NCBI GenBank assembly: GCA_948144175.1
Contig: CANXME010001985.1
Coordinates: 558,001 to 622,000 of the forward strand
Reading direction: 5' to 3'
Origin: Closterium sp. NIES-65
Taxonomy: Eukaryota > Streptophyta > Zygnematophyceae > Desmidiales > Closteriaceae
Length of the DNA stretch: 64,000 bases
The notes below the pieces were generated by a model. The model was given only the letters and a program-made list of their open reading frames with translations. It was not told where the DNA came from and did not search any database. Positions 17,009 through 55,935 of the stretch are shown here, in pieces. How positions within the stretch are numbered: position 1 is the stretch's first letter; the number at the start of each line of letters is the position of its first letter. The position numbers and the translations under genes are program-made.

Positions 17009-17019
17009 GCTCGATACCA

Positions 17020-21540: not shown

Positions 21541-21780
21541 CTGCGTTCAGTTCAGTGTTGTTCGCAGAGCACAAGAGGGTGGTCAGAGTGTTAAGGATGG
21601 ATAAACAGGAACAAGCTTGGGCCGGTTGGATGAATGAATTAAATAATAAGTATTCTTACAACGTGCTGATCTAACTGCAGAGGCGCCTGAAGAATATTCA
21701 ACCAAGAATGCCAAATTGTCAGAAGCGCATTTCAGTCTTCCAGAAGCTGCTGTGAAGGAACTTGTTTGAAGACGTCTCAA

Positions 21781-21985
21781 ACAGTCATGGCTGTGTTAGG
21801 CCCTAACTCCCATCAGCAGTGCATTGTTCAACCACAGCAACTGCCATGGCAGCCACCCGCCCATTCAGCCTTCCTGAAGCTGGTGAAACGGAATAAAACA
21901 GTCATGGCTGTGTTAGGCCACAACTCCCATCAGCAGTGCATTGTTCAACCGCAGCAACAGCCATGGCAGCCACCCGCGCACTGAG
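21781..21985 (+). repeat. 117-bp tandem duplication overlapping the kinase 1 C-terminus
   Basis: CAGTCATGGCTGTGTTAGGC occurs at 21781 and 21898, and about 88 bases after it match. The right copy is the last 27 codons of the kinase gene with its stop; the left copy lies just beyond the stop. An imperfect palindrome, TTTGAAGACGTCTCAAA (21765-21781), touches the left copy. Confidence 0.85.
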
Positions 21986-23392
21986 TCTTCCCGAAGTCCG
22001 CTGGAGCTTGCAGCCGTGTCGTCTCAACGGAGAGCTGTTGCACAGAGAGAGTTTGCTGACACATGGTGAGATCTTGCTGGCACATGGAGAAATCTTCTCA
22101 GCAGCACACGGAGAGAGCTTCCCAGCAGCAGATGCGCCATGGAGACGCCACTGCTTCTGCCGAAGCACGTCGGATGCAAGCTTGCGGCACGACTTGACCG
22201 TGCTGCACGTGGTTCTGTACGTGGTCTTGATCGTGAGCGTTGCAAGCGGGAACTTTAAGGCAGAGGAGGGGGAATCATCATCAGCAGGAGGCAAGGGACC
22301 CTTAGTGGATGCAGCAGCAGCAGCAGCAGCAGCAGCAGTTGTGCTGGAAAATGAAGGTGCAGTTGTGGTAGCAAATGAAGTCGCAGGTTGGATGGCAAAT
22401 GCAGGGGGAAGTTGGACAGCAGAAGCAGCCTTGGGAATGCTTCTGGGAGAACCTGAGCCGGAGAATGAAGATGGAAACAACGAGGCGCCGCACACCCAAG
22501 GGTCATTCAGAACGTCATCTATGTACGGTCGGATCTGCGGGTCGGTTGCGAGCATCGAACGGATGAGATTCTTCGCTCGGCTCGAGATGATCCACCAGCA
22601 GGGAGAGTCCCAGTCCTTGCTCTCGTCAAACGCGCGGCGACCGTTCGCGAAAGTCGGCCATTGTCCCGAAAGCATCGCGTACAGGGTAACACCGAGGCTC
22701 CAAATGTCTGCAGCGAAATCGTATGATTTTCCCGCCAAAACCTCGGGAGCCTCGTAAGGGGAGCTCCCTGCATAGCCGTCGATCTTCTCCCCCGGCGCAA
22801 GCACCTTCGCGATTCCGAAATCCGCGAGTTTCGTGGCGAATTCGCAACCTCTGAAGTCGCACGCACCCATGAAGTCGCTTATTAGGGTTGATCTTGGAGA
22901 CCTACTGTGTGAACCGCTTTCAGATGACATTCGCCGAAGGAGAGAAGTTTTGGCGGGAAACAAAAGAATGTTGTCGGGTTTGACGTCACGATGAATAACC
23001 CCGTTATAGTGGCACTGCTTTAAAGCCATGGCGATTCCTTTGAACAGCTCACGCGCCTCGGACTCCGGAATCCGTCCCTTCTGCTCTATCCGCGTTAGAA
23101 GGTCCCCGCCGGTAGCGAGCTCCATTACAAGCACCATCCCCCTCCCACCCTCTCCGATATAAGCATCCTCGAGAGTAACGATATTTTCATACCCTTTCAG
23201 GAGCGAAAGAGCCGTTACTTCCCGTTGCGCCGCGTCAACCGCTTCCTTTCGCGCCTCTACCACCTTGCAGGCGAGTCGCCTGCCGGAAACGCGCTCCGCG
23301 CACTCCGCAACGACGCCGTACCGCCCCTTTCCCAGATCACCCCTGATTTCGTACTTTTCCGCGAAGGCGCTCAGGGAGTTGCGCTGCGCCAT
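21902..23392 (-). CDS. Ser/Thr protein kinase 1 (CAMK-type, PEPC-kinase/CDPK-like catalytic domain)
   Basis: Single-exon gene of 496 residues. The catalytic domain (about 14-300) is complete: Gly loop GKGRYGVV (21-28), Lys43, Glu58, HRDVKPDN (134-141), DFG (191-193) and APE (215-217). About 49 residues separate HRD-x-K-P-D-N from DFG, against 13-14 in most kinases; the extra Ser/Arg-rich loop lies just before the activation segment. No EF hands are present, so it is not a complete CDPK. The tail (300-496) has a poly-Ala run coded by a GCA microsatellite, then FPLATLTIKTTYRTTCSTVK and short repeats of the form K-x-SPC-x-S/A. Kinase 2 at 41701 shares insert and tail, so both are under some constraint. 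Substrate unknown; PEPC kinase is only the nearest type I can name. Confidence 0.85.
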   Translation of the reverse strand: MAQRNSLSAFAEKYEIRGDLGKGRYGVVAECAERVSGRRLACKVVEARKEAVDAAQREVTALSLLKGYENIVTLEDAYIGEGGRGMVLVMELATGGDLLTRIEQKGRIPESEARELFKGIAMALKQCHYNGVIHRDVKPDNILLFPAKTSLLRRMSSESGSHSRSPRSTLISDFMGACDFRGCEFATKLADFGIAKVLAPGEKIDGYAGSSPYEAPEVLAGKSYDFAADIWSLGVTLYAMLSGQWPTFANGRRAFDESKDWDSPCWWIISSRAKNLIRSMLATDPQIRPYIDDVLNDPWVCGASLFPSSFSGSGSPRSIPKAASAVQLPPAFAIQPATSFATTTAPSFSSTTAAAAAAAAASTKGPLPPADDDSPSSALKFPLATLTIKTTYRTTCSTVKSCRKLASDVLRQKQWRLHGASAAGKLSPCAAEKISPCASKISPCVSKLSLCNSSPLRRHGCKLQRTSGRLSARVAAMAVAAVEQCTADGSCGLTQP

Positions 23393-25318: not shown

Positions 25319-28300
25319 TTAGCTACGGTACATCCCTCTGCTGCTGCCTTTTCTGTAGATCAGCAGTGCCACAACAACCAGCGATGCTACAGCCACCAGC
25401 CAGGCCATCACTAGGGCCGTCACACAACCGCCCGGCACGAGACCAATGAGCATCTGCCACGTGGCATGGGTTGAAGGGGCGAGTGAGTGAATGAATCATT
25501 GATAGAGTGAGGGAGCGGGTGGGCGGTGACAAGTTTCAGCCAAGTCATGTGGCTCAAAACAAGACTAGAACTTTCAAGGCACATAAAACGATGAGCAAAG
25601 AGGGCCAAATAGGAGCAAGGAAACTCCCGAATACTGCTGCTGCTGCTGCATGAATCCCAGGAGCCTTCATCTCTTGAGAGGGAAAAAAACTTATAGGCGA
25701 CTCAACACGCACGGCAAAGAGGAGAAGCAGGTTCAAGGAAACTCACACACACTGCTGCGGCTGCATGAATCGCAGGAGCCGTCATCTCTTGAGGGGTGGA
25801 GGGAAAGGAGAAGCGCCATTCTGACACCTGCCCAGCCTGCCCGACCTGCCCTAACTGCCCAAACTGCCCCTCATCTGCTGCTGGTGTGCCCCCTGCTGCT
25901 GTCTCTGTACCCCTTAGAGGCTGCCTCTCTTGCACTGCCTCTGCTGCTCCGCTCGACTGTATTCCTGGAGGGAGCTCTGTCCCCTTTATAAGCTGCACCT
26001 TGTGTGCGTCATAAGCCAGCACCATTCCCAGGGAGTGTATTATGAGGAACGCTGCAGAGGCTATGGCTGGAAAAGAAACGGATGCAGAAAGCAGAGGGAG
26101 AGAGGATGGTTCGTCACTTTAAGGAGCTCTTTTTAGGGAGGATGTGGAAGAGGGAGAAAGGAAATGGGAGTGGAGAAATAACAAGCACCACCCCCGGGGT
26201 GTGTATTATGAAGAATGCTGCTTGGGTTGGGCCTATGAATTTTGAGGTGCCTCAAAAGTTGTATACACCACCAGCACCATTTTCAGGGTGTGTATCGTGA
26301 GGACTGCTGCAGAGCCTATGGCTAAAACCGGGGGGATGGGGAGGAGAGAAGGGAGGGAGAACAAGAGTGTGGAGGAGGAGCAGGAGTAGAGAGAGTTCCC
26401 TGCCCAGTCCCCACCCTCCCCTCCCCCACATGCACCTGCTAGGAGCACGAGGGGCCGCTGGGGGCAGCGCCAGGAATAGAAGGCTGGCAGGCCCGGCGCT
26501 GGCGCTGACACTCTAGGTTCACTGGCGCTGACACTCTAGGTTCACTGGCGCTGACACTCTAGGTTCACTGGCGCTGACACTCTAGGTTCACTGGCGCTGA
26601 CACTCTAGGTTCACTGGCGCTGACACTCTAGGTTCACTGGCGCTGACACTCTAGGTTCACTGGCGCTGACACTCTAGGTTCACTGGCGCTGACACTCTAG
26701 GTTCACTGGCGCTGACACTCTAGGTTCACTGGCGCTGACACTCTAGGTTCACTGGCGCTGACACTCTAGGTTCACTGGCGCTGACACTCTAGGTTCACTG
26801 GCGCTGACACTCTAGGTTCACTGGCGCTGACACTCTAGGTTCACTGGCGCTGACACTCTAGGTTCACTGGCGCTGACACTCTAGGTTCACTGGCGCTGAC
26901 ACTCTAGGTTCACTGGCGCTGACACTCTAGGTTCACTGGCGCTGACACTCTAGGTTCACTGGCGCTGACACTCTAGGTTCACTGGCTCTGACACTCTAGG
27001 TTCACTGGCGCGTGAGGAGGCTTCCTTTCCCCGACCCAGTCTAGAGGCGCCTAGAGTGTCCCTAAAACTGGAACCTAGAGTGTCCCTTCCCAGATCCAAC
27101 CTCCAGGGAACCTAGAGTGTCAGGAGCACACACTGACTGCAATGAAATACCTGCTAGGAGAACAAGGGGCAGTTGAGGGCAGCGCCAGGAGTAGAAGGTC
27201 GCGGGGCCGATGGCGGGTGAGGAGACTCCTCCCTCCCCACATCCCACTTTTCCCACCCTTGTGCATTCTGGTCGTACCTACTGAGTGGAAAATACCTGCG
27301 AGCAGCACGAGGGGCAGTTGAGGGCAGCGCCAAGAGGAGAAGGTCGCGGGGCCGATGGCGGGTGAGGAGATACCCCCTTCCCCACATCCCCCCTTCCCCA
27401 CATCTAATACTAACTAAGTAGGTCGTACCTGCAAGCAGCACAAGGGGCAGTTGAGGGCAGCGCCACGAGTAGAAGGTTGCTGGGCCGATGGCGGGTGAGG
27501 AGACGCTGAGGAAGAGGAAGAGCGAGTGGGCGATCCCATGGCCCAGACCGGAAGCTGTAGTTTAGAGGATTGGGGGACGGAGGGTTGGGGGGGAGGAGGG
27601 GAGAGGGGGGGGTTGTGCAGGGATGAGGAAAGGCAAGGCGGGGTAGTGTGAGGAAGGTGGCAGGAGCCTAAGGTGCGATGGCGGGTGAAGAGACGCTTTT
27701 GAGTCGACTCAAAAATCGCCTCATCACACGCGGAAAGGCAAGGCGGGGTAGTGTGAGGAAGGTGGCAGGAGCCTAAGGTGCGACTTTTGAGGCGCCTCAA
27801 AAGGTGGCAGGGGCCTAAGGTGCGATGGCGGGTGAAGAGACGCTGAGGAAGAGGAAGAGGGAAGGATTGAGCGATCCCATGGCCCAGCTGTAGAATAACG
27901 GAAGGGTAGGGGGGCAGAGGGTGGTTTGCTGCAAGGATGAGTGTAGACAAGGTGGGGATACTGCTGAGGAAGAGGAGGAGGGGGTGAGTGATCTCATGCC
28001 TAGAACAGTAGTCGTAGAAGATGGGGGACAGGGAGGTGGGGTGTACTTGCTTAGATGATACTTACAGAGAGAAAGATGGAAGGTGTTGAGAGGGGAGAGC
28101 GGGGGCAGGCGTCTTGCAGTGGCTATGGTGTTCAGACCGCGCTCTAGGCGACTGGATGGGGTGGGGGGGACAAAGGGAGGAAGAATTAGGGAGGAGGAAA
28201 GCGAGGGGACATTGACGGATCACAACAGGTGTCTTGCAGCAGCTATGGCGTCTAGAGCGCTCTCCAGACGACTGGGTGGGGTGGGGGGAACAAAGGGAAG

Positions 28301-29584
28301 GTAAAAAAGGAGGAAGAAGAAGGGAGGAGGCAAGGAGAAAGGGTCATTGACAAATCACAACAGGTGTCTCACAGTGGTTATGTCGTTTAATTTAGACCAC
28401 GTTTTAAGCGACTGGGGGTAGGGGAAAACAAAGGGACGGAAAGAAGGGAGGAAGTGAAAGGGAGGAAGGAAGGAATTGGGGGAACAAAGAAGGGAAAGCG
28501 GAGTGTCAAAGGAAGATGCCTACAAGGGAATGCTTGGAAGAGGGTGCATACGGCAGAATGCTCTTGAGCAGCGACGGCAGAGAGGATGAGGAGGAAGAGG
28601 AAGGAGCGGAAACAGAAGCATCGGAAACAGGGGATTGACTTAAGGGAGGCGCGGGCTAACAAGAGTATTTGGCAGAGCAGCTGGCGGGAGACCTCTTGAC
28701 CAGCAACAGCAGAGAGGATGAGGAGTAGGAGGAAAAAGAAGTGGGAAGTGCGGGTGCTTACACCAATATACCTACAAGAGTATTTGACAGAGCAGCTGTC
28801 GTGAGACCTCTTGGGCAGCGACAGCAGAGAGGATGAGGAGGAGGAGGAAGAAGTCGGAGAGAGCAGTGAGGGCGATGAAGGGACGCCAAAAGAAGGCGAT
28901 TGCGAGGAGGGTGATGAGCCAATAGAAGGTGCTGTTGGTGGGGGGGAGGGAAGAATGGGGAGAGAAATGGAAGAGTGGAGGGAATACTCAAAGCGAGCAG
29001 TGAGGGCGATGAAAGGACCCCAGAGCAAGGCGATTGCGAGGAGAGTGATGAGCCAATAGAAGGTGCTGTTGGTTGGGGAGGAAGGAGAGGAGGTTAGGAG
29101 GGGGAGGGGATGGAGAAAAGGGAGGATACGCTCGGAGAAAGGAGTGGGGTTAATGGAGGGAAGAAAGGTAGGGAGAGGCGAGGGAAAGGGGAGGGGGGGG
29201 GAAAGCGCAAAGTGTGGTGTGGAGGGATGGGGGGTGGATTCGAAGACGGGAGGATGAGGTGAGACAAAATGGGGAGCAGAAAACGAGCCGTTTCGAGCTG
29301 CTTCGAGGAACGAGACCAGAAAAAGAAGGGGAGACGACACCCTGCTGGTTAGTGGCCACAATCCGGCAATTCATTAAATGCTATATGATGCTAAAAACAT
29401 GTGACTTGCCGTGACTGTAAACACCTGGTGAGAGTAACGAGCGATTGTTGAACGAGAGCGACTGTAAGCACCTGGTGAGAGTAACGAGCGAGAGGAACGC
29501 CTGTCGCGACACGGTAACGGCGATCACGGCAATGGCCGGTCCGAAGCCAATCAGAAACGCGCCGCAAAACGCGGCGAATGTCAT
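25319..29584 (-). CDS. APH1: APH-1, gamma-secretase subunit (7 exons, 238 aa)
   Basis: Exons (minus): 29472-29584, 28776-28931, 28066-28151, 27429-27554, 25999-26066, 25753-25785, 25319-25453. Phases agree at every junction and sum to 239 codons; plant APH-1 is about 250. APH-1 is the seven-helix scaffold of the gamma-secretase intramembrane protease. Seen here: a hydrophobic start with FLIGFGPAIAVI, FWRPF after helix 2, QEVSRQLL in helix 3, RLERGL in the loop, GLGHG (121-125; the family GxxxG), GPATFYSWRC, His171 in helix 5 (IIHSLGMVLAY), His190 in helix 6 (APAIH) and helix 7 ending YRKGSS. Those two His are conserved in the family. Introns hold partial copies of nearly every exon. A second exon-6 candidate exists at 25635-25670, and a second exon-2-like copy at about 28975-29052. 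Exon choice for those two rests on resemblance to the family. Confidence 0.85.
25635..25670 (-). other. APH1: Alternative copy of APH-1 exon 6
   Basis: 36 bp, phase 0 at both ends, reading MKAPGIHAAAAA against MTAPAIHAAAA in 25753-25785. It keeps the conserved Pro-x-Ile-His, the CTCAAGAG acceptor and a GTATTC donor, so either copy could be spliced to exon 7 without a frameshift. Confidence 0.65.
26190..26325 (-). repeat. Two partial copies of the APH-1 exon 5 region around a palindrome
   Basis: Copies of the exon 5 start (GTGTATTATGA...GCTGCAGAG on the plus strand) lie at about 26190-26222 and 26271-26325. Between them is TTTTGAGGTGCCTCAAAA at 26240-26257. The genuine exon is 25999-26066. 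Confidence 0.75.
26501..27013 (+). repeat. 23-bp homogeneous tandem repeat in APH-1 intron 4
   Basis: Twenty-two copies of a 23-bp unit containing GGCGCTGACACTCTAGG, with starts every 23 bases from 26501. Only one unit shows a base change (GGCTCTGAC near 26985). Remnants of ACCTAGAGTGTC follow at 27040-27120. Near-identity means recent expansion or homogenisation. Confidence 0.95.
27142..27368 (-). repeat. Two partial copies of APH-1 exon 4 end
   Basis: At 27142-27230 and 27288-27368 the minus strand repeats the exon 4 end (GPATFYSWRCPQLPLVLLA plus a GT donor) with few changes. A more diverged copy lies at about 26430-26490. Upstream exon parts are missing, so they look like decoy exons rather than usable ones. 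Confidence 0.75.
27627..27895 (-). repeat. Three direct copies in APH-1 intron 3 separated by two palindromes
   Basis: A block containing GGCAAGGCGGGGTAGTGTG and GGAGCCTAAGGTGCGA occurs at 27627-27696, 27732-27783 and, in part, 27803-27857. The junctions hold TTTTGAGTCGACTCAAAA (27697-27714) and CTTTTGAGGCGCCTCAAAAG (27784-27803). A partial copy of exon 4's start (GHGIAQS) follows to 27895. Confidence 0.85.
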
Positions 29585-30539
29585 CTCGGCCGACCAATCG
29601 TCGGTCGAGGATAGGCTGAGACGATTCTAAAGTTCCAACTAACCCATATGGCTGATAGATTTTACTTGCCGAATAACACTTCTGTGATGAAAATTCGTTT
29701 CGCCTGATGGTTTCTGGATGTAAATCGCCTGATAACTCCAGATTCCGGAGCCTGGAAGTACAGGGCGGGTCCAGCACGTACATTTAGGGCGGGTCCAGCA
29801 CGTACATTTAGGGCGGGTCCAGCACGTACGTATTCCGTACATTACAGTTCATCCAGTGCGGTAATCTGTATTGCGTCACGGTTCGGAACGGTGAAATTTT
29901 ATTACCATTGTGCACCGTTTGATATCTTTTGAAACCACAACAAATAAACTGCATAGTACCTGTATATGTACGCGCTGGACCCGCCCTTACAGCTCTTGTA
30001 CAGTTCATCCTCGTGGTTTAAGACGATATCAGGCGGCGCACAGCGGTTCTCAATCTTCACCGCTTTGCACCGTGACACATGACGAATAACTGCACATAAT
30101 GAACTGAACCAGCTGAACATGGAAGCTGCGTTCGCAATGTTACCGTCGAGCGACAACATCCACTCCGGGAGTCGATCCTTGCTGATCAGGGTCGCTTCTT
30201 GTGTCGACCGTGTGTCAGAATTTCTTTTCTCGTTCATTCACAGGTTCACGCCCCTGGAAAGGGCCGGGATTCGGATTTCTGGTAAATCGATAAGCCTACA
30301 AAAGCGTGCATTAGACTCTTTTTGAGTAGTTAAATCTCTAATCTAAAAACGTAAAAGTAAAGGTAGGCATTTCCTCCCTAAATCCCTAAGCCTCTGGAAG
30401 CACTTTGCCTCAATTATCACAAATCCGTGGCCACTGCGAAGTGTACACCTATTTCCAGCTTTTGCAAGGATGCCATTTCATTTATGCATCCCTCCATCTA
30501 GAAGTTTAGAACCACAGCACACCACACCCTGTGCATCCT
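29585..30539. other. Intergenic region with a 24-bp triple repeat
   Basis: Between chorismate synthase stop and APH-1 start, both on the minus strand. AGGGCGGGTCCAGCACGTAC repeats three times with a 24-bp period at 29761-29830. An inverted copy, GCTGGACCCGCCCT, lies at 29974-29987. This could be a small fold-back element of about 230 bp. No gene was seen. Confidence 0.5.
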
Positions 30540-33500
30540 TCATTGCTCGCTATACATAGCAGACTGCTCCATCACTGTAGCTTCCCGCTGGTTACCGCCC
30601 GTAACACTAGCAGCACCAGCAGCAGGGGCGAGGGCTTCAGCAGGCAGCAGGTCGCACTGAGCCACGTGCTGCAGCAGCTGATCCGCTAGGACTAAGGCAA
30701 CCATCGCTTCCACCATTGGGACAGCTGGAGAGAGGTGAGTGGGGGAGAACAGAACACGAGCACAAGGGAAAAAACACTTGGGAGGTGAGCAGGTCGCACT
30801 GAGCCACGTGCTGCAGCAGCTGGTCAGCCAGAACTAAGGCAACCATCGCTTCAACCATTGGGACAGCTGAATTGACAGGGGGAGGAAAGGAGGGAAGGAG
30901 AGGAGAAGGAAAGGAGCTGAGTGGTAACCATGAGCAGGCAGCAGGTCGCACTGAGCCACGTGCTGCAGCAGCTGATCCGCCAGCACCGCTACCATTGCTT
31001 TGACCATGGGGACCGCTGGAGAGAGGGACGTAAGGAAGGGAAGAGCAGAAGAGGAAGAGGGGCGAAGGAAGATGAAAAGAACAAAAACGAATACCCTGGG
31101 AGGCAAGCGCATATTGCAAGTGAATACCACGTGCCATGGTCGTTGATCCATAGTCGTCTTGATTCGATTTGATTTGATTTGATTTGATAGCGCAATGGCT
31201 ACAACCTCGGCCAGACCTAACAGCCCGATTACCACAACCCACCTCTGGGCACCGCAACCCACCTCTGGGCACCACACAGGGATCATGCCGGCCACGCGCC
31301 TTAAGCTCTGTCTCCACGCCCTCGCGAGTCACCGTGCGCTGACTCCTCTGTTGACGTGCAGAGAGAGGCAAAGTGGGGAAAGAGGAAGAAAGTTGATCAG
31401 GCAAGAAGCCTTATGCTTTGGGGGTTAGCATAGTGAACCCGCATGCCTTGAGCTCTGTATGTTTTTTGAGAATTCTCAAGAAACATACACCACATGCCTT
31501 GAGCTCTGTCTCCACACCCTCACGAGTCACCGTGCGCTGACTCCTCTGTTTAGGTGCGAAGGAGGGGAAAAGGGGGAAATGATGAACGGAAGTTTTTGAG
31601 AAGCCTTTTTCTTTGGGGGTCAGCATAGTGAGTGTCCACGCCGTCACAAGTCAGAGTCTTGAAAATCTGAGGCATCACGAGTTGTTGTTCGGGATCCATT
31701 CCTGAATGCCCCTGCATGCTCAGTTGGTGCTTGCACAAGTGTGCAAGAGTCAAGAAAGCATGATCCAGTCCAGACTCACCGTGATGGTGGAAGTGGGCTT
31801 GAACACCACGCGCACCACAATGTTCTCCCCGTTCGAGATGCCCCCCTGAATGGCCCCCTGAATGGCCCCCTGAATGGCCCCCTGAATGCCCCCCTGGATG
31901 CCTACACTGTTGTACCAGCCTGGCACTGAATGCAATTCAACACACACATACCGGGATGGTGGAAGTAGGCTTGAACGCCACGCGCACCACAATGTTCTCC
32001 CCATTCGAGATGCCCCCCTGAATGCCCCCTTAGTGGCGAGCGGCTGAGTGGAGAAAGACGCACGCGTCCTGCTGCGTCCTGCGTCTGGACGCTGCGTCCA
32101 GACGCAGAGACGCAAGACGCGCGTCCAGACGCAGGACGCACACTGAATATTTTTTCCGGGCTGACCGGAAAAAAAATTGTTGCCCCAGCGCGAAATTGAC
32201 CCTAACGATTTCGACGCGACTGTCAATTTCGCGTCATGTCGACCCCCCCTAACCCATTTCGACCATCAAAAACACCCTAGAGGGTTTACCAAGACAATTC
32301 TCCTTCGTAAACCCTAAACCCTGGAAATTTGAAGAGGACGATTTTGCCTCAAATGTGTGCATCTTCCTTCCCCCCCCTCCCCCCTTCCCATACCCTACAA
32401 CATCATTTTTCGGCTGCCCGGGGGTTTTTTTTGCCCTGCCTGGGCATGCGTCTTTTCATGCGTCCTAAAGGCCCTCCTCTAGCGTCCTGCGTCTAAGATG
32501 CTGCGTCTGGACGCATGCGTCCTAGACGCAGGACGCGTCTTTCTCCACCCAGGCGAGCGGTTGGTGGGTTGTTCCTCACACATGCACACACTCGACAACC
32601 AGGATCAACCTGAGTATCCAACTAGCAGTTATGCTGCACGAAAGACTCACCGTGATGGTGGAAGTAGGCTTGAACGCCACGCGCACCACAATGTTCTCCC
32701 CGTTCGAGATGCCCCCCTGAATGCCCCCCGAGCGGTTGGTGCGAGTGCGAATGGCACCATCGGGGGCAACATAAAACTCGTCATTGTGCTCGCTTCCCAA
32801 CATGCGCGTGCCTGCAGGAATGGGAGGGAGAGGGGGGAGGGGCAGGCCATATCACAGGAAGCAGCTGAGAGGGGGGAGGGGCAGGCCATATCACAGGAAG
32901 CAGCTGAGAGGGGGGAGGGGCAGGCCATATCACAGGAAGCAGCTGAGAGGGGGGAGGGGCAGGCCATATCACAGGAAGCAGCTGAGAGGGGGGAGGGGCA
33001 GGCCATATCACAGGAAGCAGCTGAGAGGGGGGAGGGGCAGGCCATATCACAGGAAGCAGCTGAGAGGGGGGAGGGGCAGGCCATATCACAGGAAGCAGCT
33101 GAGAGGGGGGAGGGGCAGGCCATATCACAGGAAGCAGCTGAGAGGGGGGAGGGGCAGGCCATATCACAGGAAGCAGCTGAGAGGGGGGAGGGGCAGGCCA
33201 TATCACAGGAAGCAGCTGAGAGGGGGGAGGGGCAGGCCATATCACAGGAAGCAGCTGAGAGGGGGGAGGGGCAGGCCATATCACAGGAAGCAGCTGAGAG
33301 GGGGGAGGGGCAGGCCATATCACAGGAAGCAGCTGAGAGGGGGGAGGGGCAGGCCATATCACAGGAAGCAGCTGAGAGGGGGGAGGGGCAGGCCATATCA
33401 CAGGAAGCAGCTGAGAGGGGGGAGGGGCAGGCCATATCACAGGAAGCAGCTGAGGGGTTGGTGCGAGTGCGGATAGCCTCATCTGGGGCAATGTAGAAAT

Positions 33501-36500
33501 CATCGTTGTGCTCGCTTCCCAGCATGCGCGTGCCTGCAGAAGAGAGAATGAGAGATGGATGGGATGGGTGAATGAGGACCGTTGCGTGCCTGTAGGGGAG
33601 GTGGTGGAAAAAGGGATATAGGGGAGGAAAGTTGAGGCTCAGATCATAGGGATATAGGGGAGCGAATGCAGCTGGTCCTGTCTGGAGCAACGTAGAACTC
33701 GTCGTTGTGCGCACTGCCCAGCATGCGCGTGCCTGGGGGGTGTGGTGGTGTGGGGAGGCACGGAGGGAAGAAGGTGCTTCACAGTGAGGAGTGCAGAATG
33801 CTGCCCTGAATGCCCCCGAGCGGTTGGTGAGTGTGCGGTGCGGATGGCACCATCTGGGGCAACGTAGAACTCGCCGTTATGCTCACTGACTAGCATGCGC
33901 GTGCCTGGGGGGAGTGAGGGGCGAGATGGGGGGGGTGTGAGAGGGGATAAAGGCCAAACACGTGAGTGCGGATGGCACCATCCGGGGCAACATAGAACTC
34001 ATCGTTATGCTCACTGACTAGCATGCGCGTGCCTGGGGAGTGGGTTGGGGCAGGAGGCGGGGGGGAAGGGGGAAGGGAGCAAGCACGAGAGGGCAAGGAG
34101 AAGGAGAAAAGGGGAAAGTGAAGGGGAGGAGTGTGGCCCCATCTGGAGCCACATAGAACTCGTCGTTTGGCTCACTGCCTGGCATGGATGTGTCAGCAAT
34201 GAGGCATCGGTGTGTGATGGCTTTTGAGTCGACTCAAAAGTGAACTCGTCGTTTCGCTCACTGCCTGGCATGGATGTGTCAGCAATGAGGCATCCCTGTG
34301 TGATGGATGGGTGGGTGGTAATCGAAACTGTGCAACTCCCAATGCATCACATCACACTGTGCAACTCCCAATGCATCACATCACACTGTGCAACTCCCAA
34401 TGCATCACATCACACGACTCGGAGGCGCAAGAAGGACCAATTAATTATTTGAGAATTCTAAAAAAAACACAGAATCCTTTTCACGCAGCTGGATCATGCA
34501 TGAATTGTCCCTTTCCGAGGCACACAAAAACCTACCTGAAGCGAGGTTGTTTTTGAGACGTCTCAAAAATCATGCACGAATTGTCCCTTTCCGAGGCACA
34601 CAAAAACCTACCTGATAAAGAATTTATCAGGCATAGAAGAAGCAGGTCAGGAATCTTGTTTTCGTCCAATCGAGCCCCACTTAGAGGCCATGGGTCGATA
34701 CGTGGCAGCAATGCCTTGAGGTGACTTTTGAGTCGACTCAGAAGACACCATATTAGGCATAGAAGAAGCAGGTGAGGAATCTTGTTTTGTGAAAGCATAC
34801 CTGAGAAGCCACTCCCGATCTCAAACCCCTTAGTGGCGGGCAGAGACAAGAGCGAGTGACAAGAGGGCATGGAGCACGGGCATCGCCGGGGGGGAATACA
34901 CACTGAGAACAATCTCAAACCCTTTAGCAGCGCATCACAAGGCATACCTGAGAAGCCACTCCCGATCTCAAACCCCTTGGTGGCCGGCAGAGACATGAGC
35001 GCCCGTGCTAGCTCGGCCTCTAGCTTGTCAAACACAGGCGAGCCCAGACCCTGGTGGGGAGAAAAAGTGGGAGAGGAAAGGAGGAATGGTTGGAGAAGCG
35101 CGGAGAAAGGAAGGGTGAGAGACATGAGCACCCATGCTAGCTCTTGATCCTGCTACCCAAGATGGTAGCACTTCACACTCCTCCATACCCACCCCACTTA
35201 CACAGCGCTTTAAACAGGGAAGCCCACAGGGGCACAAGCTTTGCTACTCAGGCAGGGGCCGTGGGGGCGAGTGACGGGGGGCGCGGGGGTGAGTGATGAC
35301 TACGCCTCTTGCCATCAGCTCTAGTTGCTGCTTACCCCCGACCCGATACAGTTTTTCTAGAGCGAAAGCAGCCAGCCACCGCCCACCACCCTTTGAGACG
35401 TCTCAAAACACTTCTTGATACTGACGACTACACGGCTAGCCATCAGCTCTAGTTGCTTACCCCCAACCGACCCGACACAGCTTTTCTAGAGTGAAAGCAG
35501 CCACCACCACCCTTCTTCTCCACACCCATCTCACCCGAGGGACGTTCCTGGCCACGCACGTGACCACGCCGCCACACGAGTCGCCCTTCACCCTCACAGC
35601 GTCAATCGCATCGATCATCCGCTCTGCAATGGCGGCATCGGGGCAACGTACGATGTTCGCCTCAACCTGAGCCAGGGTGGGGAGGGGAGGGGGAGGAGGG
35701 GAAAGGGTGGATAGGGGGGGGGGGGAGGAGGGGGGGGTGGGTTTCCCTTTCCCCTTCACCCTCACAGCGTCGATCGCATCGATCATCCGCTCTGCAATGA
35801 CAGCATCGGGGCAACGTACGATGTTGGCCTCCACCTGAAAAGAAGACGAGCATGAGGCGAAGAAGTGGGTGATGAGTTTGCCATACATACATCCTCACAG
35901 CATCAATCACTGGCATTGATCATCCCCCCCCGCCACTGCCGCATCGGGGCAACGCAGCGCACTATGTTGCTCTCCACCTGAAAGGAGAGGAGAAGGAGGC
36001 GAAGGAACGGGAGCAGAGGGCGCACAGTACGATACACATCAGCAGTGCAGTGAGTTGCCCTTCATCCTCACAGCATCAACCATTCGCTCTGCAACTGCCG
36101 CATCAGGGCAACGCACTATGTTGCTCTCCACCTGATATGGTGGCAACAGAGAGCGGGAAGGAGCGATGGTGGGTGAGGTGGGGCAGGGGAGGGGGGGTGA
36201 GGGACGGGACCCAGGAGAGAGGAGCGCCCTTCACCCTGACAGCATGAAGGGCATCAACCATTCGCTCCGCCACTGCCGCATCAGGGCAATGCACTATGTT
36301 GCACTCCACCTGATGGTGGTAACAGTCAGGGAAGAAGCACAGTAGAAGTGAGGAGAAGGGGAACCACAGTAAGATCAACATCAGGGGGCAGGGAGGTCCG
36401 GAGCTTCACGCTCACAGTCCCACCTGGTCTAGTGCGACTGTATCGAGATTGGTGGCATGCTCTGGCAGGTCAAAAGATAGAGCGTTAAAAAACATTTGCT

Positions 36501-39500
36501 TGTTTGCTTTGCAGTCATCCTTCCATTATGATCCCATGTGGTCCAGTCCGGTGTGACTGTATCGAGGTTGATAGCGCCCTCCCCTCCTCTGGCAGGTCGA
36601 CAGATGGGAGTGTCAGAATGTCTTGTTGATTTCACTCACTCACTCACACTGCGTAATTCGCATTCGACTTTTGAGTCGACTCAAAAGAATGTCTTGTTGA
36701 TTTCACTCACCCACACACACACACTGCGTAATTCGCATTCGTCTCTTCGTTGTAGTACCACCTACCTACCTGGTCCAGTGTGACTGTATCGAGGTCGATG
36801 GCATCCTCTGGCAGATCCACGTGGTGCACTTGAGAAACGAACGCGATCACCTGGTGAGAGAGAAAGGGGGGGAGGAGGGGGGAGGGGAATCAAGAAGAAG
36901 AGGGGGTGGAGGACTTGAAGGAAGAGGTCACTAGCATCCTCTGGCAGGCCAGGTCTACATGGTGCACTTGAGACACAAACAAACGCGAGCACCTGACGAG
37001 AGAGAGGGGTAGAGAGGGTGGGGGAGGGGAAGGAAGAGGAGGGGGTTAAGGATTCTAATAGAGAAATAGAGAGCAAGACTCTGGCAGGACTACATGTTGA
37101 GTTTGAGACACAAAGGCCAGCGCCTAGCCAGGGCCTAAACACGGATAAGACAAGCCATGCCAGCCAAAAGGTCGAATAAGAACTCACGAACACAGACAAC
37201 AGCAGCTTACATCGGTGCCTGAGTGGAGGGCCAGAAGCTTCTTGGCAATTGCGCCGGCCGCCACTCGGCCAATAGTTTCACGAGCTGACGACCTGCCTCC
37301 GCCCTGAGCGTGTGGGGGAGAAAATGGTATTGTGAGGTTTGGGTTTGGGGGAGAGGGGGAAGGAAGGGGGAGGGAAGAGAAGGCGTGTTTGATGGAAAAA
37401 CACACTGTGCTCAATAGTTTCGCGAGCTGATGACCGGCCCCCGCCCTGAGTGTGGGGGGGAAGGAAGAGAGGGAGGAGAGGAGCAGTGTGATGGGAAGAG
37501 AAGACAGATGCAACGCGCACGCTCAAGTTTTGAGACGTCACGTCTCAAGACTCGGCCAATACTTTCATGAGATGACGACCCGCCTCCTCCCTGATTGTGC
37601 AGGGGAGGGTGTTGTGAGGTTTGGAGCGGAGGGAAGTGGGGGTAGAGAGGGGAAAAGTGCAGGGAATTGAGGAATAACAGTGCACTGCATGCTCATTGGT
37701 GGCTCGAGCTGACCTATGTAAAACATGTAGTTCACGGCACAGCGAATCGAGAGATGGGGAGCATTTGGTCGTCTGACTCTTCATCCCTCCCTCCTCCTCC
37801 TCACCTGAATGGCTCGCGCGCCGTACTTGAAGTCGTACGTTGCATCGGCGTGGGAAGGGCGGTAAGCACGTTTTGAGATGTCTCAGCATTCATCCTCACC
37901 AAATTGGCTTGTTCATCCCTCCTCAGTCTCACCTGAATGGCTCGCACGCCGTACTTAAAGTCGCATGTTGCATCAGCAAGGTGACTTGGGTCTTGTGCGT
38001 TGACTCAAAAGTGACGTCTCACTCACCTTCATGCCACCTCCCCCTCATTTGAATGCTCCTCCATCCCTCACTCAGTCTCACCTGAATGGCTCGCACGCCG
38101 TACTTAAAGTCGTATGTTGCATCGGCGTGGGAAGGGCGGTAAGCCACTGCAATCTCAGAATAGTCCTGAAAGGGATGGGGGTTGGTGGAAGGGGGATGAG
38201 GGATGAGGGGTTGGGGAATGATGACGAGAAATTCATGGGATTTACAGTGTTAAGAGAAACAAGCAAAGTACACCCACCCCTTCCCCCATTGCTCCTCTCT
38301 TCAACACACCCCTTCCCCCTCTCTGCTCCTCTCTTCAACACACTCTTTCCCCCGCTGCTGCTCCTCTCTACCACACACCCCTTCCCCCGCTGCTCCTCAC
38401 TTCCACTCACTCCCTCCCCCTCTGCTCCTCACTTCCACTCACCCCTCTCCCTCCTTTCATCTCTTCCACTCACCCCTCCCCTCTGGTCTTGGTTTGGCAC
38501 GAGAACCGCGATTGGCGTTCCAAGCGTCACCCCTGCAGACGATGACCGGGGAAGCGGAGAGGAGAGTGAAGAGAGTGGGGAGAGCGAGGAGGAGAGACAG
38601 GAGAGTGAGGAGGGACAAGGGAGTGAAAAGATTTCTGTGAGTGAGGAAAATGAGAAGATTGAGAAGGTGAGAAGAGAGGATAGGATAGAGTAGGGAGAAT
38701 GAGAAGAGTGAGGGAAGTGAGGAGAGCGAGGAGAGCGAGGAGGGCGAGGAAGAGAGTGAGGAGGGCGAGGAGAGTGAGGAGGGCGAGGAAGAGAGTGAGG
38801 AGGGCGAGGAGAGTGAGGAGGGTGAGGAAGAGAGTGAGGAGGGCGAGGGGGAGAGTGAGGGGGGCGAGGGGGTGAGTGAGGAGGGCGAGGAGGAGAGTGA
38901 GGGGAACGTGAAAGAGAGTGAGGAGATTGAGGAGAGTGAGAGGAGTAAGGAGAGACAGGAGGAAAGAAAGAACAATAACGACGTACCTTCAGCAGTGCCT
39001 GACAGAATCCGGCACGTGTCTGTCTCCTTGCGGGGTGTGGTGATTCGCGACTGGCCCGGCCGACTGCCAGAAGGAGAAGGGAGAGAAGGTGGTGGGGGGG
39101 GGGGGGGGGGAGGGGGAGGGGGGAGAGGGGGGAGGGGAGGAGGGGGGGGTCAAGAGAAAGGGGGGGAGAGGTAGGAAACGGAAGGTTTGAGGTGATTTGA
39201 CAGGCGAATTCAACCGGCACGTGTCTGTCTCCTTGCAAGGGGTGGTGATGCGGGACTGGACTGGCCAACTGGTAGGAGAAGAAGTTAGCGAGAGGTGGGG
39301 TAAGCGAAAAGGGGAGAGTTAGGAGACAGCATACAAGACAGAACAAACAAACGAACAGACCACAAAACAAAGAGATTTACCCTCAACGAGAATCCATCCG
39401 CAATGCCACGGCCGGGCCAGTCGTGCTTACCACCTGTCCAGATCGACCTAAAGGTTTTTCTCTGTGAGCGGCAGACGTGTTCCCACCCATCAAAACACAG

Positions 39501-40363
39501 GGACCCCAACAAGGCTTCACTGGAGCATTGTGAAAAGCACATCTCGAAGCCGTTTCGAATTTACATACCGCCGCCAGACCAGGTCGACCCGGAGGTCCTT
39601 CTTTTGGAGCGGCAGATCGTGCTTCGAGTGAAAGAAATGAACTCCACACTAACTAAAACTCATCCGCATTGCCACATACCGCCTGTCCAGGTCGACCTAG
39701 AGGTCCTTCTCTGTGAGCAAGAGACGTGCTTCGAGTAAAAGGGTACAAAATAAAACTTAACCCTAACTACAACTCATCCGCATTGTCACATACCGCCTGT
39801 CCAGGTCGACCTGGAGGTCCTTCTCTGTGAGCGGCAGGCGCGGAGGGCAACCGTCGACGACGCAGCCTACCCCTCCGCCGTGCGACTCGCCAAATGTGGT
39901 AACCCGAAATGCGGTGCCGAAAGTGTTACCCGCCGCGCGGACAGCTGGAATTGGCGACAAATCAAGCAGAAACGATCAGAGGGTGAAATTACATTTACTT
40001 TGAATTGAGAAGAGAAAAACAGCAAGACGCGTGCGCCAATCAAGAAGCGGGAACAGGAGCACTTTAAAGTCAACAGCCAATAAAAAAGCGGAAGCGGGAG
40101 CAAGAATTGGAGCTACGGAATGGAGGATCGCGAGAGACGTTAGAAGAATGGTTCGATAATGTACTCAGATTCCTTCGATTCGGAGTGGTTCGAACCAATC
40201 GTTGTCCGGCGTCAAGGCCCGAGCTTTCCCCGAAGAACGCGCCTCGCGAGACGTCATTCCGAGCTGATCCTTTCAAGAACGACCTTCGAGGCGCGCTTGA
40301 CGGACCGCCGCGAACTAACGGCGCGAGGGCTCTGCTCGTGGTGCACGCAATGGCAGCCTCCAT
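30540..40363 (-). CDS. Chorismate synthase, plastid form (12 exons, 469 aa)
   Basis: Last shikimate-pathway step: 5-enolpyruvylshikimate-3-phosphate to chorismate, needing reduced FMN, in plastids. Exons (minus): 40165-40363, 39794-39944, 38987-39063, 38474-38532, 38082-38165, 37211-37303, 36770-36850, 35535-35666, 34948-35050, 32651-32811, 31263-31347, 30540-30724. All phases match and sum to 470 codons with the stop. Exon 1 (66 aa, Arg/Ser/Ala-rich, few acids) looks like a transit peptide. Signature motifs: FGESHGGG (84-91), [12 protein letters not shown] from exon 3, [14 protein letters not shown] (172-185), [10 protein letters not shown] (191-200), [27 protein letters not shown] and [10 protein letters not shown]. 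The first donor (GTACAT) is the least certain junction. Every intron I inspected carries partial copies of a neighbouring exon, so automatic gene prediction will probably go wrong here. Confidence 0.93.
30793..31018 (-). repeat. Two partial copies of chorismate synthase exon 12
   Basis: The start of the last exon (VPMVEAM...[13 protein letters not shown]) is repeated at about 30793-30872 and 30950-31018, each with a CAG acceptor. The copies lack the true end of the gene. Confidence 0.8.
31440..31555 (-). repeat. Partial copies of exon 11 around a palindrome
   Basis: GCATGCCTTGAGCTCTGT occurs at 31441-31458 and, as ACATGCCTTGAGCTCTGT, near 31493. Between them is a 13-bp-arm palindrome centred on GAATTC (31459-31487, one mismatch). 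The right copy extends through most of exon 11. Confidence 0.75.
31775..32035 (-). repeat. Two copies of exon 10 end plus a 12-bp microrepeat
   Basis: The end of exon 10 ([21 protein letters not shown] and its donor) recurs at about 31775-31850 and 31950-32035. TGAATGGCCCCC repeats four times at about 31847-31895 in the first copy. Confidence 0.8.
32044..32551. mobile_element. MITE-like element with terminal inverted repeats and 9-bp TSD
   Basis: About 508 bp. Ends are inverted copies: GTGGAGAAAGACGC at 32048-32061 and GCGTCTTTCTCCAC at 32535-32548, with a few more matching bases outside. It is flanked on both sides by GGCGAGCGG (32035-32043 and 32552-32560). A 9-bp duplication suggests the Mutator superfamily. 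Subterminal parts hold nested GCGTCTGGACGC/GCGTCCAGACGC palindromes. No coding capacity. It lies in chorismate synthase intron 10, within a duplicated exon-10 fragment. Confidence 0.75.
32830..33455 (+). repeat. 39-bp homogeneous tandem repeat next to exon 10 acceptor
   Basis: Sixteen identical copies of a 39-bp unit containing GGCAGGCCATATCACAGG, repeating at 32842, 32881, 32920 and so on. The unit length is divisible by three and lacks stops on either strand, so several long artefact ORFs arise. The array directly abuts the exon 10 acceptor at 32812 and on its other side a second copy of the exon 10 start. Confidence 0.95.
33455..34306 (-). repeat. Six partial copies of exon 10 start
   Basis: Copies of the exon 10 start ([23 protein letters not shown]) lie at about 33455-33535, 33665-33735, 33825-33905, 33970-34033, 34135-34190 and 34242-34275. 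Several keep a GCAG or CCAG acceptor. The last two belong to a 65-bp direct duplication (34156-34220 and 34242-34306) separated by the perfect palindrome CTTTTGAGTCGACTCAAAAG (34221-34240). Confidence 0.85.
34493..34860 (-). repeat. Direct duplications with palindromic junctions, and exon 9 copy
   Basis: ATCATGCA...ACCTACCTGA is duplicated at 34493-34539 and 34569-34616 around TTTTTGAGACGTCTCAAAAA (34550-34569). AGGCATAGAAGAAGCAGGT is duplicated at about 34629 and 34755 around CTTTTGAGTCGACTCAGAAG (34725-34744). A partial copy of exon 9's end lies at 34793-34858. Confidence 0.85.
35296..35512 (-). repeat. Direct duplication with palindromic junction downstream of exon 8
   Basis: A block with CATCAGCTCTAGTTGC and TTTTTCTAGAG(C/T)GAAAGCAG is present at 35296-35390 and 35418-35512. 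At the junction is TTTGAGACGTCTCAAA (35392-35407). Confidence 0.85.
35750..36314 (-). repeat. Four partial copies of exon 8 start
   Basis: The minus strand repeats [15 protein letters not shown] coding at about 35750-35838, 35880-35982, 36055-36135 and 36228-36314. Only 35535-35666 continues into the second half of the exon ([13 protein letters not shown]), so it is the genuine exon. Confidence 0.85.
36420..37130 (-). repeat. Partial copies of exon 7 on both sides of the exon, with a palindromic junction
   Basis: Copies of exon 7 parts lie at about 36420-36472, 36530-36602, 36930-36995 and 37080-37130. In addition AATGTCTTGTTGATTTCACT is duplicated at 36617 and 36688 around the perfect palindrome CTTTTGAGTCGACTCAAAAG (36668-36687). 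Confidence 0.85.
37405..37592 (-). repeat. Two partial copies of exon 6 start around a palindrome
   Basis: [14 protein letters not shown] coding recurs at 37405-37447 and, more diverged, 37545-37592. Between them lies TTGAGACG-TCA-CGTCTCAA (37530-37548). Confidence 0.8.
37803..38030 (-). repeat. Two partial copies of exon 5 end
   Basis: The exon 5 end ([16 protein letters not shown] plus donor) recurs at 37803-37866 and 37932-37978. A degraded palindrome TTTTGAGATGTCTCAG (37871-37886) sits between them, and a split one (GACTCAAAAGTGACGTCTCAC) follows at about 38002-38022. Confidence 0.8.
39206..39727 (-). repeat. Partial copies of exon 3 and exon 2 ends in intron 2
   Basis: One copy of exon 3 lies at 39206-39272. 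Three copies of the exon 2 end ([13 protein letters not shown] region, with the GT donor context) lie at about 39429-39475, 39567-39625 and 39677-39727. All diverge by several bases. Confidence 0.75.
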
Positions 40364-41700: not shown

Positions 41701-43170
41701 ATGGCGCAGCGCAACTCTCTGAGCGCCTTCGTTGAGAAGTACGAAGTCAGGGAGGACCTGGGAAAGGGACAGTTCGGCGTCGTTGCGGAATGCGTGGAAC
41801 GCGCTTCCGGCAGGCGACTCGCCTGCAAGGTGGTTGCGGCGCGTAAGCAAGCAATGGACGCGGCGGGCCGCGAAACGGTGGCGCTTTCGCTGCTCAAGGA
41901 GTGTGAAAATATTGTTACTCTCGAGGATGTCTTTATCGGGGAGGAGGGGAAGGGGATGGTGCTTGTAATGGAGCTCGCTACCGGCGGGGATCTTCTAACG
42001 CGGATAGAGCAGAAGGGACGGATTCCGGAGCACGAGGCGCGTGAGCTGTTCAAAGGAGTCGCCATGGCTTTAAAGCAGTGCCACTATAACGGGGTCATTC
42101 ATCGCGACGTCAAGCCCGACAACGTCCTCTTGTTTCCCGCCAAAAATTCCGCCCTAGGGCAAATCCCCTCAGGAAGCGCTTCACCCAACAGCGTGTCTCC
42201 CAAGGTAACCCTAAAAAGCGACTTCAGGGGACGCGGTTGCGAATTTATGGCGAAGCTCGCGGATTTCGGCATCGCGAGGGTGCTTGCTCCGGGGGAGAAG
42301 ACCAACGGTTACGCGGGAAGCTTCCCTTACGAGGCTCCTGAGGTCATGGCGGGAAAACCGTATGATTTCTCGGCTGACATATGGAGCCTTGGTGTCACCC
42401 TCTATGCGATGCTTTCGGGAAAATGGCCGACTTTCGCGAACGGTCGCCGCGCGTTTGACGAAAGCAAGGACTGGGACTCCCCCTGCTGGTGGATCATCTC
42501 AGGCCGAGCGAGGAATCTCATCCGTTCGATGCTCGCAACCGACCCGCAAATCCGACCGTCCATTGACGAGGTTCTGAGCGACCCTTGGATTTGCAACAGC
42601 TCTTTCCTTCCATCCTCGTTCTCCATCTCTTCTTCTGCTGTGGGTACCGCCAAGCCTGCTTCCTCACCTGTACTACAGCCTGCTGCCTCCACCGTCCCAC
42701 CTGCTGCCTTCACCGTCCCAACAGCCCCTGCTTGCACTGCCACCCCTGTAGCTGCCTTTACCATCAAGCCTGCAGCTGCTGATACCGTCACACCCACTGC
42801 ACCACCTAAGACCCGCCAGCCAGCCACTTGCGACCCGTCATCTACCTTCATCTTCCCACTTGCAACGCTCACGATCAAAACCACGTACAGGACCACGTGC
42901 AGCACGGTCAAAACCTGTAGGAAGCTCGCTTCCGATGTGCTGCAGCGGAAGCAGTGGCGTCGGCACGGCGCGGTTACCAGCAAGCTCTCCCCATGTGCCA
43001 GCAAGCTCTCTCCGTGCAACAGCTCTCTGTCGCGGCGTCACAGCAGCAGGTCGCAGCGAGGTTCCTTCTCTGCTGCTTCAGGGAGGCTGAGTGCGAGGGT
43101 TGCTGCTGTGGCAGTTGCTGCAGTGGGAGAGGCCTCTGCTGATGGGACAGACGTTCAGTGGTCCTTATAG
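41701..43170 (+). CDS. Ser/Thr protein kinase 2, paralogue of kinase 1
   Basis: Single exon, 489 residues. It begins MAQRNSLSAF like kinase 1. Catalytic landmarks: GKGQFGVV (21-28), Lys43, Glu58, HRDVKPDN (134-141), DFG (188-190), then APE. The extended loop between HRD and DFG is present but its sequence differs from kinase 1, while length is nearly kept (Ser/Pro-rich). The tail has a Pro/Thr/Ala-rich linker, then the shared TIKTTYRTTCSTVK block and KLSPC repeats. No EF hands. Upstream context ATCCATGGCG is identical to kinase 1. The two genes point away from each other and enclose APH-1 and chorismate synthase. Complete and apparently intact; substrate unknown. Confidence 0.87.
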   Translation: MAQRNSLSAFVEKYEVREDLGKGQFGVVAECVERASGRRLACKVVAARKQAMDAAGRETVALSLLKECENIVTLEDVFIGEEGKGMVLVMELATGGDLLTRIEQKGRIPEHEARELFKGVAMALKQCHYNGVIHRDVKPDNVLLFPAKNSALGQIPSGSASPNSVSPKVTLKSDFRGRGCEFMAKLADFGIARVLAPGEKTNGYAGSFPYEAPEVMAGKPYDFSADIWSLGVTLYAMLSGKWPTFANGRRAFDESKDWDSPCWWIISGRARNLIRSMLATDPQIRPSIDEVLSDPWICNSSFLPSSFSISSSAVGTAKPASSPVLQPAASTVPPAAFTVPTAPACTATPVAAFTIKPAAADTVTPTAPPKTRQPATCDPSSTFIFPLATLTIKTTYRTTCSTVKTCRKLASDVLQRKQWRRHGAVTSKLSPCASKLSPCNSSLSRRHSSRSQRGSFSAASGRLSARVAAVAVAAVGEASADGTDVQWSL

Positions 43171-47055: not shown

Positions 47056-47067
47056 TGGAATCAGAGC

Positions 47068-55923: not shown

Positions 55924-55935
55924 TGGTATCAGAGC

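What the first reader, a model, noticed from the sequence alone, without database searches (positions are those of the whole stretch)
26240..38022. Palindromes TTTTGAG-NNNN-CTCAAAA sit at junctions of local duplications
At least ten short palindromes occur here: 26240, 27697, 27785, 31459, 34221, 34550, 34725, 35392, 36668, 37530, with degraded ones at 37871 and 38002. The arms are constant but the centre varies and usually stays self-complementary (TCGA, ACGT, GCGC, AATT). In each case I checked, the bases left and right of the palindrome are direct copies of each other (for example 34156-34220/34242-34306, 34493-34539/34569-34616, 36616-36666/36687-36741, 35296-35390/35418-35512). I know of no described element with this layout. 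Ideas: a footprint of a TIR transposon or hairpin-ended intermediate that duplicates flanks of 20-100 bp, or filler made during tandem duplication. An assembly or library artefact that joins overlapping ends through a synthetic linker must be excluded first.
Basis: partly seen in the sequence, partly recalled or inferred. Interest (0 to 1): 0.92.

Follow-up and report, generated by a model that had tools for sequence, protein, structure and literature searches.

The report
Mobile palindromes with long target duplications
A green alga's nuclear genome carries tens of thousands of tiny palindromic DNA sequences, and in the stretches examined most sit between two copies of the DNA they landed in, which looks like an undescribed way for very short DNA to spread.

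Summary
The window lies in an 874 Mb Closterium genome. TTTTGAGNNNNCTCAAAA occurs there at 30,327 sites, against 4 for the reversed control pattern; the TCGA-centred 18-mer alone at 13,080.

In the 318 kb I read, 57 of 65 exact copies (40 of 47 outside tandem arrays) have direct copies of the flank next to both sides, against 83 of 600 random positions. Clean duplications are 13-71 bp. A nested pair and the joint decay of palindrome and flanks point to single insertion-plus-duplication events and speak against an artefact.

The 18-mer is only the core. Outside it are arms that agree within a locus and are cut back to different lengths on the two sides; the longest palindrome found is 52 bp.

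My reading: a non-coding palindromic sequence is copied onto both 3' ends of a staggered break, the two copies join at the core, and fill-in duplicates the overhang. Insertion with duplication is well supported; donor, enzyme and order of steps are inferred. No empty allele could be tested: whole-genome search answered only two of my requests.

The parts
26240..26257 (.). Exact arms, centre GTGC (not self-complementary; one change from GCGC). Weak duplication beside it.
   Evidence: duplication 21/25 and 49/59 at 26016-26074/26271-26327
27627..27843 (.). Nested pair. Outer: palindrome 27697-27714 (TCGA) with right arm 27715-27731 and a 70-bp duplication, 27627-27696 and 27732-27843; the right copy is interrupted by the inner event.
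   Evidence: outer duplication 69/70 once the inner event is left out
27761..27825 (.). Inner event: palindrome 27785-27802 (GCGC) between 23-bp copies 27761-27783 and 27803-27825.
   Evidence: 22/23
31298..31634 (.). Palindrome 31464-31481 (AATT, 1 mismatch), paired outer arms TGTATGTT/AACATACA, old duplication of about 139 bp.
   Evidence: 114/141; arms; right end approximate
34156..34306 (.). Palindrome 34222-34239 (TCGA) between 34156-34220 and 34242-34306.
   Evidence: 62/65
34447..34464 (.). Degraded palindrome (AATT, 2 mismatches), no junction duplication found.
34493..34615 (.). Palindrome 34551-34568 (ACGT) with left arm 34540-34550, between 34493-34539 and 34569-34615.
   Evidence: 46/47
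34625..34788 (.). Palindrome 34726-34743 (TCGA, 1 mismatch) with left arm GGTGAC; duplication 34625-34662/34751-34788 whose left copy ends 63 bp before the core.
   Evidence: 36/38; fails the junction test
35294..35512 (.). Palindrome 35391-35408 (ACGT, 1 mismatch) between 35294-35384 and 35422-35512.
   Evidence: 78/95
36616..36741 (.). Palindrome 36669-36686 (TCGA) between 36616-36666 and 36687-36741.
   Evidence: 49/55
37528..37549 (.). Variant with a longer centre, TTTTGAG-ACGTCACGT-CTCAAG. No close junction duplication.
   Evidence: sequence; one search gives only a diverged, distant duplication (110/155)
37871..37888 (.). Degraded palindrome (2 mismatches) beside a duplicated exon piece.
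   Evidence: 52/59 with 24 and 27 nt between copies and core
37993..38010 (.). Degraded palindrome (2 mismatches), no junction duplication found.
21765..21782 (.). Possible further degraded copy (3 mismatches) outside the finding's range, beside a tandem duplication of period 117.

Best explanation
Each site is the scar of an insertion of a short, non-coding palindromic sequence into a staggered break with long 3' overhangs. Shown by sequence: a constant core TTTTGAG-NN|NN-CTCAAAA; outer arms that agree with each other within a locus and are cut back to different lengths on the two sides; in most sampled sites, direct copies of the flank next to the insert (13-71 bp in clean events). Inferred: the donor is a palindrome of up to about 54 bp (ACGT class, CACGTG-N12-TTTTGAG-NNNN-CTCAAAA-N12'-CACGTG) or about 40 bp (TCGA class, arm CACGAGGTGAC). 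The same donor arm is copied onto both 3' ends, from a variable starting point. The two new ends join through the self-complementary core, so the core is kept. Fill-in of the overhangs makes the direct repeat. Because arms are written anew in each event they stay complementary while the sequence drifts between loci. Whether the donor is RNA or a DNA hairpin, and which enzyme makes the nicks, is unknown.
For: 30,327 sites against 4 for the control pattern. Junction duplication in 57 of 65 exact cores, 19 of 27 with one and 15 of 30 with two mismatches, against 83 of 600 random positions. Nested event: inner palindrome plus one 23-bp copy left out, the outer duplication is 69/70. Broken palindrome pairs rise with flank divergence (Spearman 0.49, n 91, p 7e-7). 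Inner 4 bases of the two arms agree within loci (mean 2.92 of 4) more than between loci (1.57), 0 of 20,000 permutations. 27 of 54 TC-class arms are exact inner pieces of one arm, of 1 to 7 nt, seen 7, 6, 4, 4, 3, 2 and 1 times. All 65 exact cores keep one of four centres or a one-base change of it. A doubled arm at L019 2019 suggests repeated copying. Fill-in at 3' overhangs as a source of small tandem duplications is established in human and mouse cells (PMC8355091; abstract and passages).
Against: No donor, enzyme or transcript found; Rfam finds nothing in the window. No empty allele seen. No motif at the break sites. Microhomology at the start of the arms is modest: mean 0.92 against 0.38 permuted (P 0.001, n 24), and two of the 24 lie in tandem clusters; without them the mean is 0.64, significance not recomputed. 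7 of 26 loci show 0-1 matching arm bases; one of them (27697) is explained by nesting, the others are mostly old or ambiguous. 8 of 65 exact cores lack a junction duplication. Near-tandem duplications without the core are frequent too (91), so some host process duplicates DNA without this palindrome. The sampled sites are not a random draw, and array members are not independent.
Confidence: 0.55

Rival explanations
1. Passive capture: breaks with 3' overhangs are repaired with tandem duplication anyway, and hairpin fragments cut out of this abundant palindrome are ligated in as filler. The palindrome is cargo, not an agent.
For: The same 318 kb holds 91 near-tandem duplications with no recognisable core, 72 of them with a gap unrelated to the neighbouring sequence. 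Cut-back arms fit nibbled ends. Host fill-in gives small tandem duplications in other organisms (PMC8355091).
Against: One palindrome family dominates: 26 of the 35 strongest palindromes in the sample were tagged with this core, a 27th (L018 5407) carries it with a mismatch. The core is almost never cut into while the arms are.
Confidence: 0.27
2. Footprint of a cut-and-paste transposon with ends TTTTGAG...CTCAAAA that left its two ends behind.
For: Symmetric ends and direct repeats; a few centre classes could be subfamilies.
Against: Solo arms are only slightly above expectation (29 and 26 against 19.5 and 22.6), and inward and outward arm pairs within 3 kb are equal, 4 and 4. Direct repeats vary from 13 to 71 bp in clean events, while cut-and-paste transposons make short repeats of fixed length (recalled).
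Confidence: 0.08
3. Pre-existing palindromes are fragile sites whose breakage duplicates the flank.
For: Palindromes can extrude and break (recalled); duplications are common here.
Against: Palindrome and flanks age together and one event is nested in another; arms differ between loci but agree within them.
Confidence: 0.06
4. Assembly or library artefact through a synthetic linker.
For: The layout resembles overlapping ends joined by a linker.
Against: Copies of many ages with correlated decay and a nested event, arms that differ between loci, 30,327 sites; published Closterium assemblies of about this size are from PacBio reads (PMC10407611, passages).
Confidence: 0.01

Closest known systems
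Short palindromic repeats of Volvox carteri organelle DNA (PMC2670323; abstract and passages)
   Same: Non-coding palindromes of tens of bases spread through introns and spacers of a green alga, shared core motif, related classes
   Different: There mainly mitochondrial and plastid, with 3-5 nt loops; nuclear copies are judged inert arrivals. The word 'duplication' does not occur in the text. Here the sites are in a nuclear assembly, without a loop, with flank duplications. Motifs differ.
GC clusters (GC42) of yeast mitochondrial DNA (PMC4478555; passages)
   Same: Non-coding hairpins of about 42 nt treated as mobile DNA, flanked by direct repeats; RNA-mediated copying discussed
   Different: Direct repeats are AG or ACT, not 13-71 bp; mitochondrial; different sequence
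Tandem duplications by CST/Pol alpha-primase fill-in at 3' overhangs (PMC8355091; abstract and passages)
   Same: A break with 3' overhangs becomes a small tandem duplication by fill-in
   Different: No constant inserted sequence; shown in human and mouse cells with Cas9-made breaks
SINE/LINE-type insertions by target-primed reverse transcription (recalled)
   Same: Direct repeats of variable length; truncated inserts
   Different: Here the insert is a palindrome, both ends are cut back, no tail and no coding partner found
MITEs and other TIR elements (recalled)
   Same: Short, non-coding, high copy, inverted repeats
   Different: No interior at all; flank duplications long and variable; no longer relative found in 318 kb

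Membership tests
Organellar short palindromic repeats | Short palindromes of a shared motif dispersed in non-coding DNA | tested here: met
   that the sites are non-coding was checked only for the window by eye against PF01264 exon matches
Organellar short palindromic repeats | Organelle location or origin | not tested
   Window contig carries nuclear-type genes with introns and copia elements; no Closterium organelle DNA was compared
GC clusters | Direct repeats of 2-3 nt | tested here: not met
   13-71 bp in 37 clean events
TIR DNA transposon / MITE | Fixed-length target duplication | tested here: not met
   13-71 bp
TIR DNA transposon / MITE | Longer elements with the same ends | tested here: not met
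   None in 318 kb: 4 inward against 4 outward solo-arm pairs; genome-wide not tested
SINE/LINE-type retroposon | Variable-length target duplication | tested here: met
SINE/LINE-type retroposon | Constant 3' end or tail and one-sided truncation | tested here: not met
   Both sides are cut back
SINE/LINE-type retroposon | RNA intermediate | not testable with these tools
   No RNA data
Fill-in tandem duplication at 3' overhangs | Adjacent direct copies of tens of bases | tested here: met
Fill-in tandem duplication at 3' overhangs | Dependence on CST / Pol alpha-primase | not testable with these tools
   Needs genetics

The most novel reading that the evidence does not exclude
A new class of nuclear mobile DNA: a non-coding palindrome of at most about 54 bp that spreads by being copied onto both 3' ends of a staggered break and joined through its own core. 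Each jump writes both arms anew from one donor arm, so the stem drifts in sequence yet stays symmetric, and each jump tandemly duplicates tens of bases of host DNA. It has reached about 30,000 sites in one genome and may help to make the partial exon copies seen in introns.
Probability: 0.35. Interest if true: 0.88.

Novelty: new variant of a known kind. Interest (0 to 1): 0.77.

Why it matters
The described mobile palindromes that I found are organellar. A nuclear family at 30,327 sites whose copies record the event (two arms, two truncation points, one duplicated overhang) would be a natural laboratory for break repair and for the smallest possible mobile DNA. It could also explain part of the local duplication that fills introns in this relative of land plants. 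Crossable strains exist (F1 hybrids of NIES-64 and NIES-65, PMC10407611, passages), so it can be tested.

Tried and rejected
Solo arms as ends of longer elements: 28 solo TTTTGAG on both strands of 314 kb; 29 TTTTGAG and 26 CTCAAAA against 19.5 and 22.6 expected in 318 kb. RNA family in the window: none at gathering score. The TCGA 18-mer: 0 stretches in viral contigs, 4 in prokaryote genome contigs, about what chance gives in 257 billion bases by my own arithmetic. Break-site motif: none evident in 37 events. A spliced-leader-like or telomerase-like template: considered because every addition ends in TTTTGAGNC or TTTTGAGAA; no source found. Two independent templates per site: disfavoured, arms agree within a locus. 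Paralogous empty sites inside the fetched DNA: BLAST gave mainly repeats and the kinase pair (111 matches, most of them listed); by my reading of the coordinates no useful pair covers a core. Prior reports: searches, listings only, showed none; one search found 13 papers with closterium and palindrom*, 10 listed, none on nuclear palindromes by title. One search was on tandem-duplication mechanisms.

Full report
WHERE IT IS. The window is G000:C1687:558001-622000 of an assembly of 874,075,685 bases in 2400 contigs. The protein at 41701-43170 is 100% identical over 98% of its length to a Closterium sp. NIES-64 protein, and the next hits are other Closterium strains. The assembly size is near the 876 Mb given for NIES-65, not the 703 Mb of NIES-64 (PMC10407611, passages), so the strain is not settled. 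The finding overlaps a chorismate synthase gene on the minus strand: PF01264 matches at 39766-39975 (50.9 bits) and 37187-37522 (34.1 bits) pass the cut-off of 27, while 38022-38249 (25.9) and 37784-37882 (21.0) fall below it. Copia-type domains lie at 44.5-60 kb, with similar DNA at 9.8-17.2 kb.

Six exact copies, none expected; 18 with up to 3 mismatches against 1.97 expected. Genome-wide 30,327 exact copies against 4 for the reversed pattern; 13,080 with centre TCGA against 0. The same 18-mer is in 4 stretches of the prokaryote collection and in no viral contig. Tandem arrays such as C6:107990-108155 are included, so 30,327 counts sites, not events.

FLANK DUPLICATION. I read 317,856 bases (total): the window, 20 stretches of 10 kb of which 19 were chosen around listed palindromes and one is next to the window, 5 of 10 kb chosen blind and 6 short ones around listed palindromes. 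A test for direct copies ending near the core on both sides is passed by 57 of 65 exact cores, 19 of 27 with one mismatch and 15 of 30 with two, against 83 of 600 random positions away from cores. Of the 65, 18 sit in five tandem arrays; without them it is 40 of 47 (my recount). An earlier, cruder version gave 32 of 57 against 210 of 2000 random positions and 357 of 1822 positions near cores. The background is high because this genome is full of local duplications. In 37 clean events (at least 92% identity, at most one core mismatch, arms up to 24 nt, the large arrays left out) the copies are 13 to 71 bp, median 30, with no evident motif at the break sites. Older events in the window reach about 91 and 139 bp.

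ONE EVENT, NOT TWO. At 27627-27843 two palindromes are nested: leaving out the inner palindrome and one 23-bp copy gives a 70-bp duplication around the outer one at 69/70. Over 91 events (array members included, so not all independent) broken palindrome pairs rise with flank divergence (Spearman 0.49, p 7e-7), and exact cores have less diverged flanks (p 0.00014). That is expected if palindrome and duplication are made together and age together, and it speaks against a recent linker.

ANATOMY. The 18-mer is the part that is kept. Of 65 exact cores 60 have centre TCGA (32), ACGT (15), GCGC (11) or AATT (2); the other five are one base away. Outside lie arms. In the TC class they are pieces of (CACGAG)GTGAC: reading outward, 27 of 54 arms are exact inner pieces of 1 to 7 nt, seen 7, 6, 4, 4, 3, 2 and 1 times (arms of 0 or over 30 nt not listed), and the two sides of a locus are often cut back to different lengths. 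In the AC class arms reach 18 nt and differ between loci; by eye they share an outer CACGTG and a nearly C-free stretch of 12. Recurring arms: CACGTGAAAGAAGGAGTG at L023 4604 and, shortened, at L034 534; an arm ending GAGGTTGT at L011 1216 and window 34551. Within a locus the arms agree: 2.92 of 4 inner bases against 1.57 between loci, 0 of 20,000 permutations, 26 loci, of which 7 have 0-1 matches. The longest palindromes are 52 bp (L023 4587-4638) and 50 bp with a mismatch (L014 2276-2325); of the 35 strongest palindromes in the sample 26 were tagged with this core and a 27th carries it with a mismatch. Put together from such arms, a 54-nt and a 40-nt form fold as RNA hairpins at -42.2 and -30.3 kcal/mol. 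The 54-bp full length is a proposal: no complete copy was seen.

MECHANISM. Read as additions to the two 3' ends of a break, the inserts are 'part of an arm, then TTTTGAG, then NC or AA' on both strands. Scheme: (1) nicks or a staggered break leave 3' overhangs of tens of bases (inferred); (2) both 3' ends are extended by copying the same donor arm from a variable start (inferred), perhaps helped by short microhomology (mean 0.92 against 0.38, P 0.001, n 24; two junctions in tandem clusters inflate it, 0.64 without them); (3) the ends meet in the self-complementary core, which is why the core is kept although the arms are cut back (inferred); (4) fill-in of the overhangs creates the direct repeats. 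Step 4 has a model in human and mouse cells: CST-guided Pol alpha-primase fill-in at 3' overhangs, then end joining (PMC8355091; abstract and passages). A doubled arm at L019 2019 and two adjacent palindromes in L033 suggest that copying can repeat. Agreement of arms within a locus means one donor per event, with arms written anew. Whether the donor is RNA or DNA is open.

ALTERNATIVES. A TIR footprint is disfavoured: solo arms are only slightly above expectation, and inward and outward arm pairs are equal. Passive capture of hairpin fragments by host repair is the strongest rival, because the same DNA holds 91 near-tandem duplications without a recognisable core; against it stands the dominance of one palindrome family. 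Fragile pre-existing palindromes do not explain joint ageing or nesting.

KNOWN RELATIVES. Nearest are the short palindromic repeats of Volvox organelle genomes, whose nuclear copies are judged inert (PMC2670323; abstract and passages), and the GC clusters of yeast mitochondria, hairpins flanked by AG or ACT (PMC4478555; passages). In the listings of searches I saw no report of nuclear palindromes with long flank duplications; the library lacks most subscription papers.

LIMITS. No empty allele, no RNA, no enzyme, no raw reads. Whole-genome search answered two requests (16, 44). The sample is not random. Steps 1-3 are inference.

Noticed in passing
window and L005-L035: 91 near-tandem duplications without a recognisable core (copies at least 30 bp and 90% alike, gap 8-110): copy length varies, yet the period (copy plus gap) is 106-185 bp in 77 of 91; in 72 the gap is unrelated to the neighbouring sequence.
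   Followed up: partly
window 37784-37882 and 38022-38249: A chorismate synthase exon piece (AYRPSHAD...) is present twice, one copy probably decayed, with degraded palindromes beside it; local duplication seems to leave pseudo-exons in introns.
   Followed up: partly
window 21902-23392 (-) and 41701-43170 (+): Two related protein kinase genes in inverted orientation flank the region, 78.7% identical over 1324 bp.
   Followed up: no
window 32048-32548: A sequence that starts GTGGAGAAAGACGC and ends GCGTCTTTCTCCAC, flanked by near-copies of GGCGAGCGG: looks like a TIR element of about 500 bp in an intron (read).
   Followed up: no
window 9836-17151 and 44513-63549: Several copia-like copies. 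No palindrome with up to 2 mismatches lies in them, which could mean young elements or a preference of the palindromes for gene regions.
   Followed up: no
G000:C6:107990-108155, C10:378176-378319, C16:109897-110170, C18:9243-9638: Palindrome plus flank has expanded into tandem arrays with periods of 37, 42, 64 and 63 bp (positions): minisatellites seeded by the insertion.
   Followed up: partly
window 26508-27010 and 32845-33455: Two long, nearly perfect tandem arrays inside the finding's range, unrelated to the palindromes (read).
   Followed up: no
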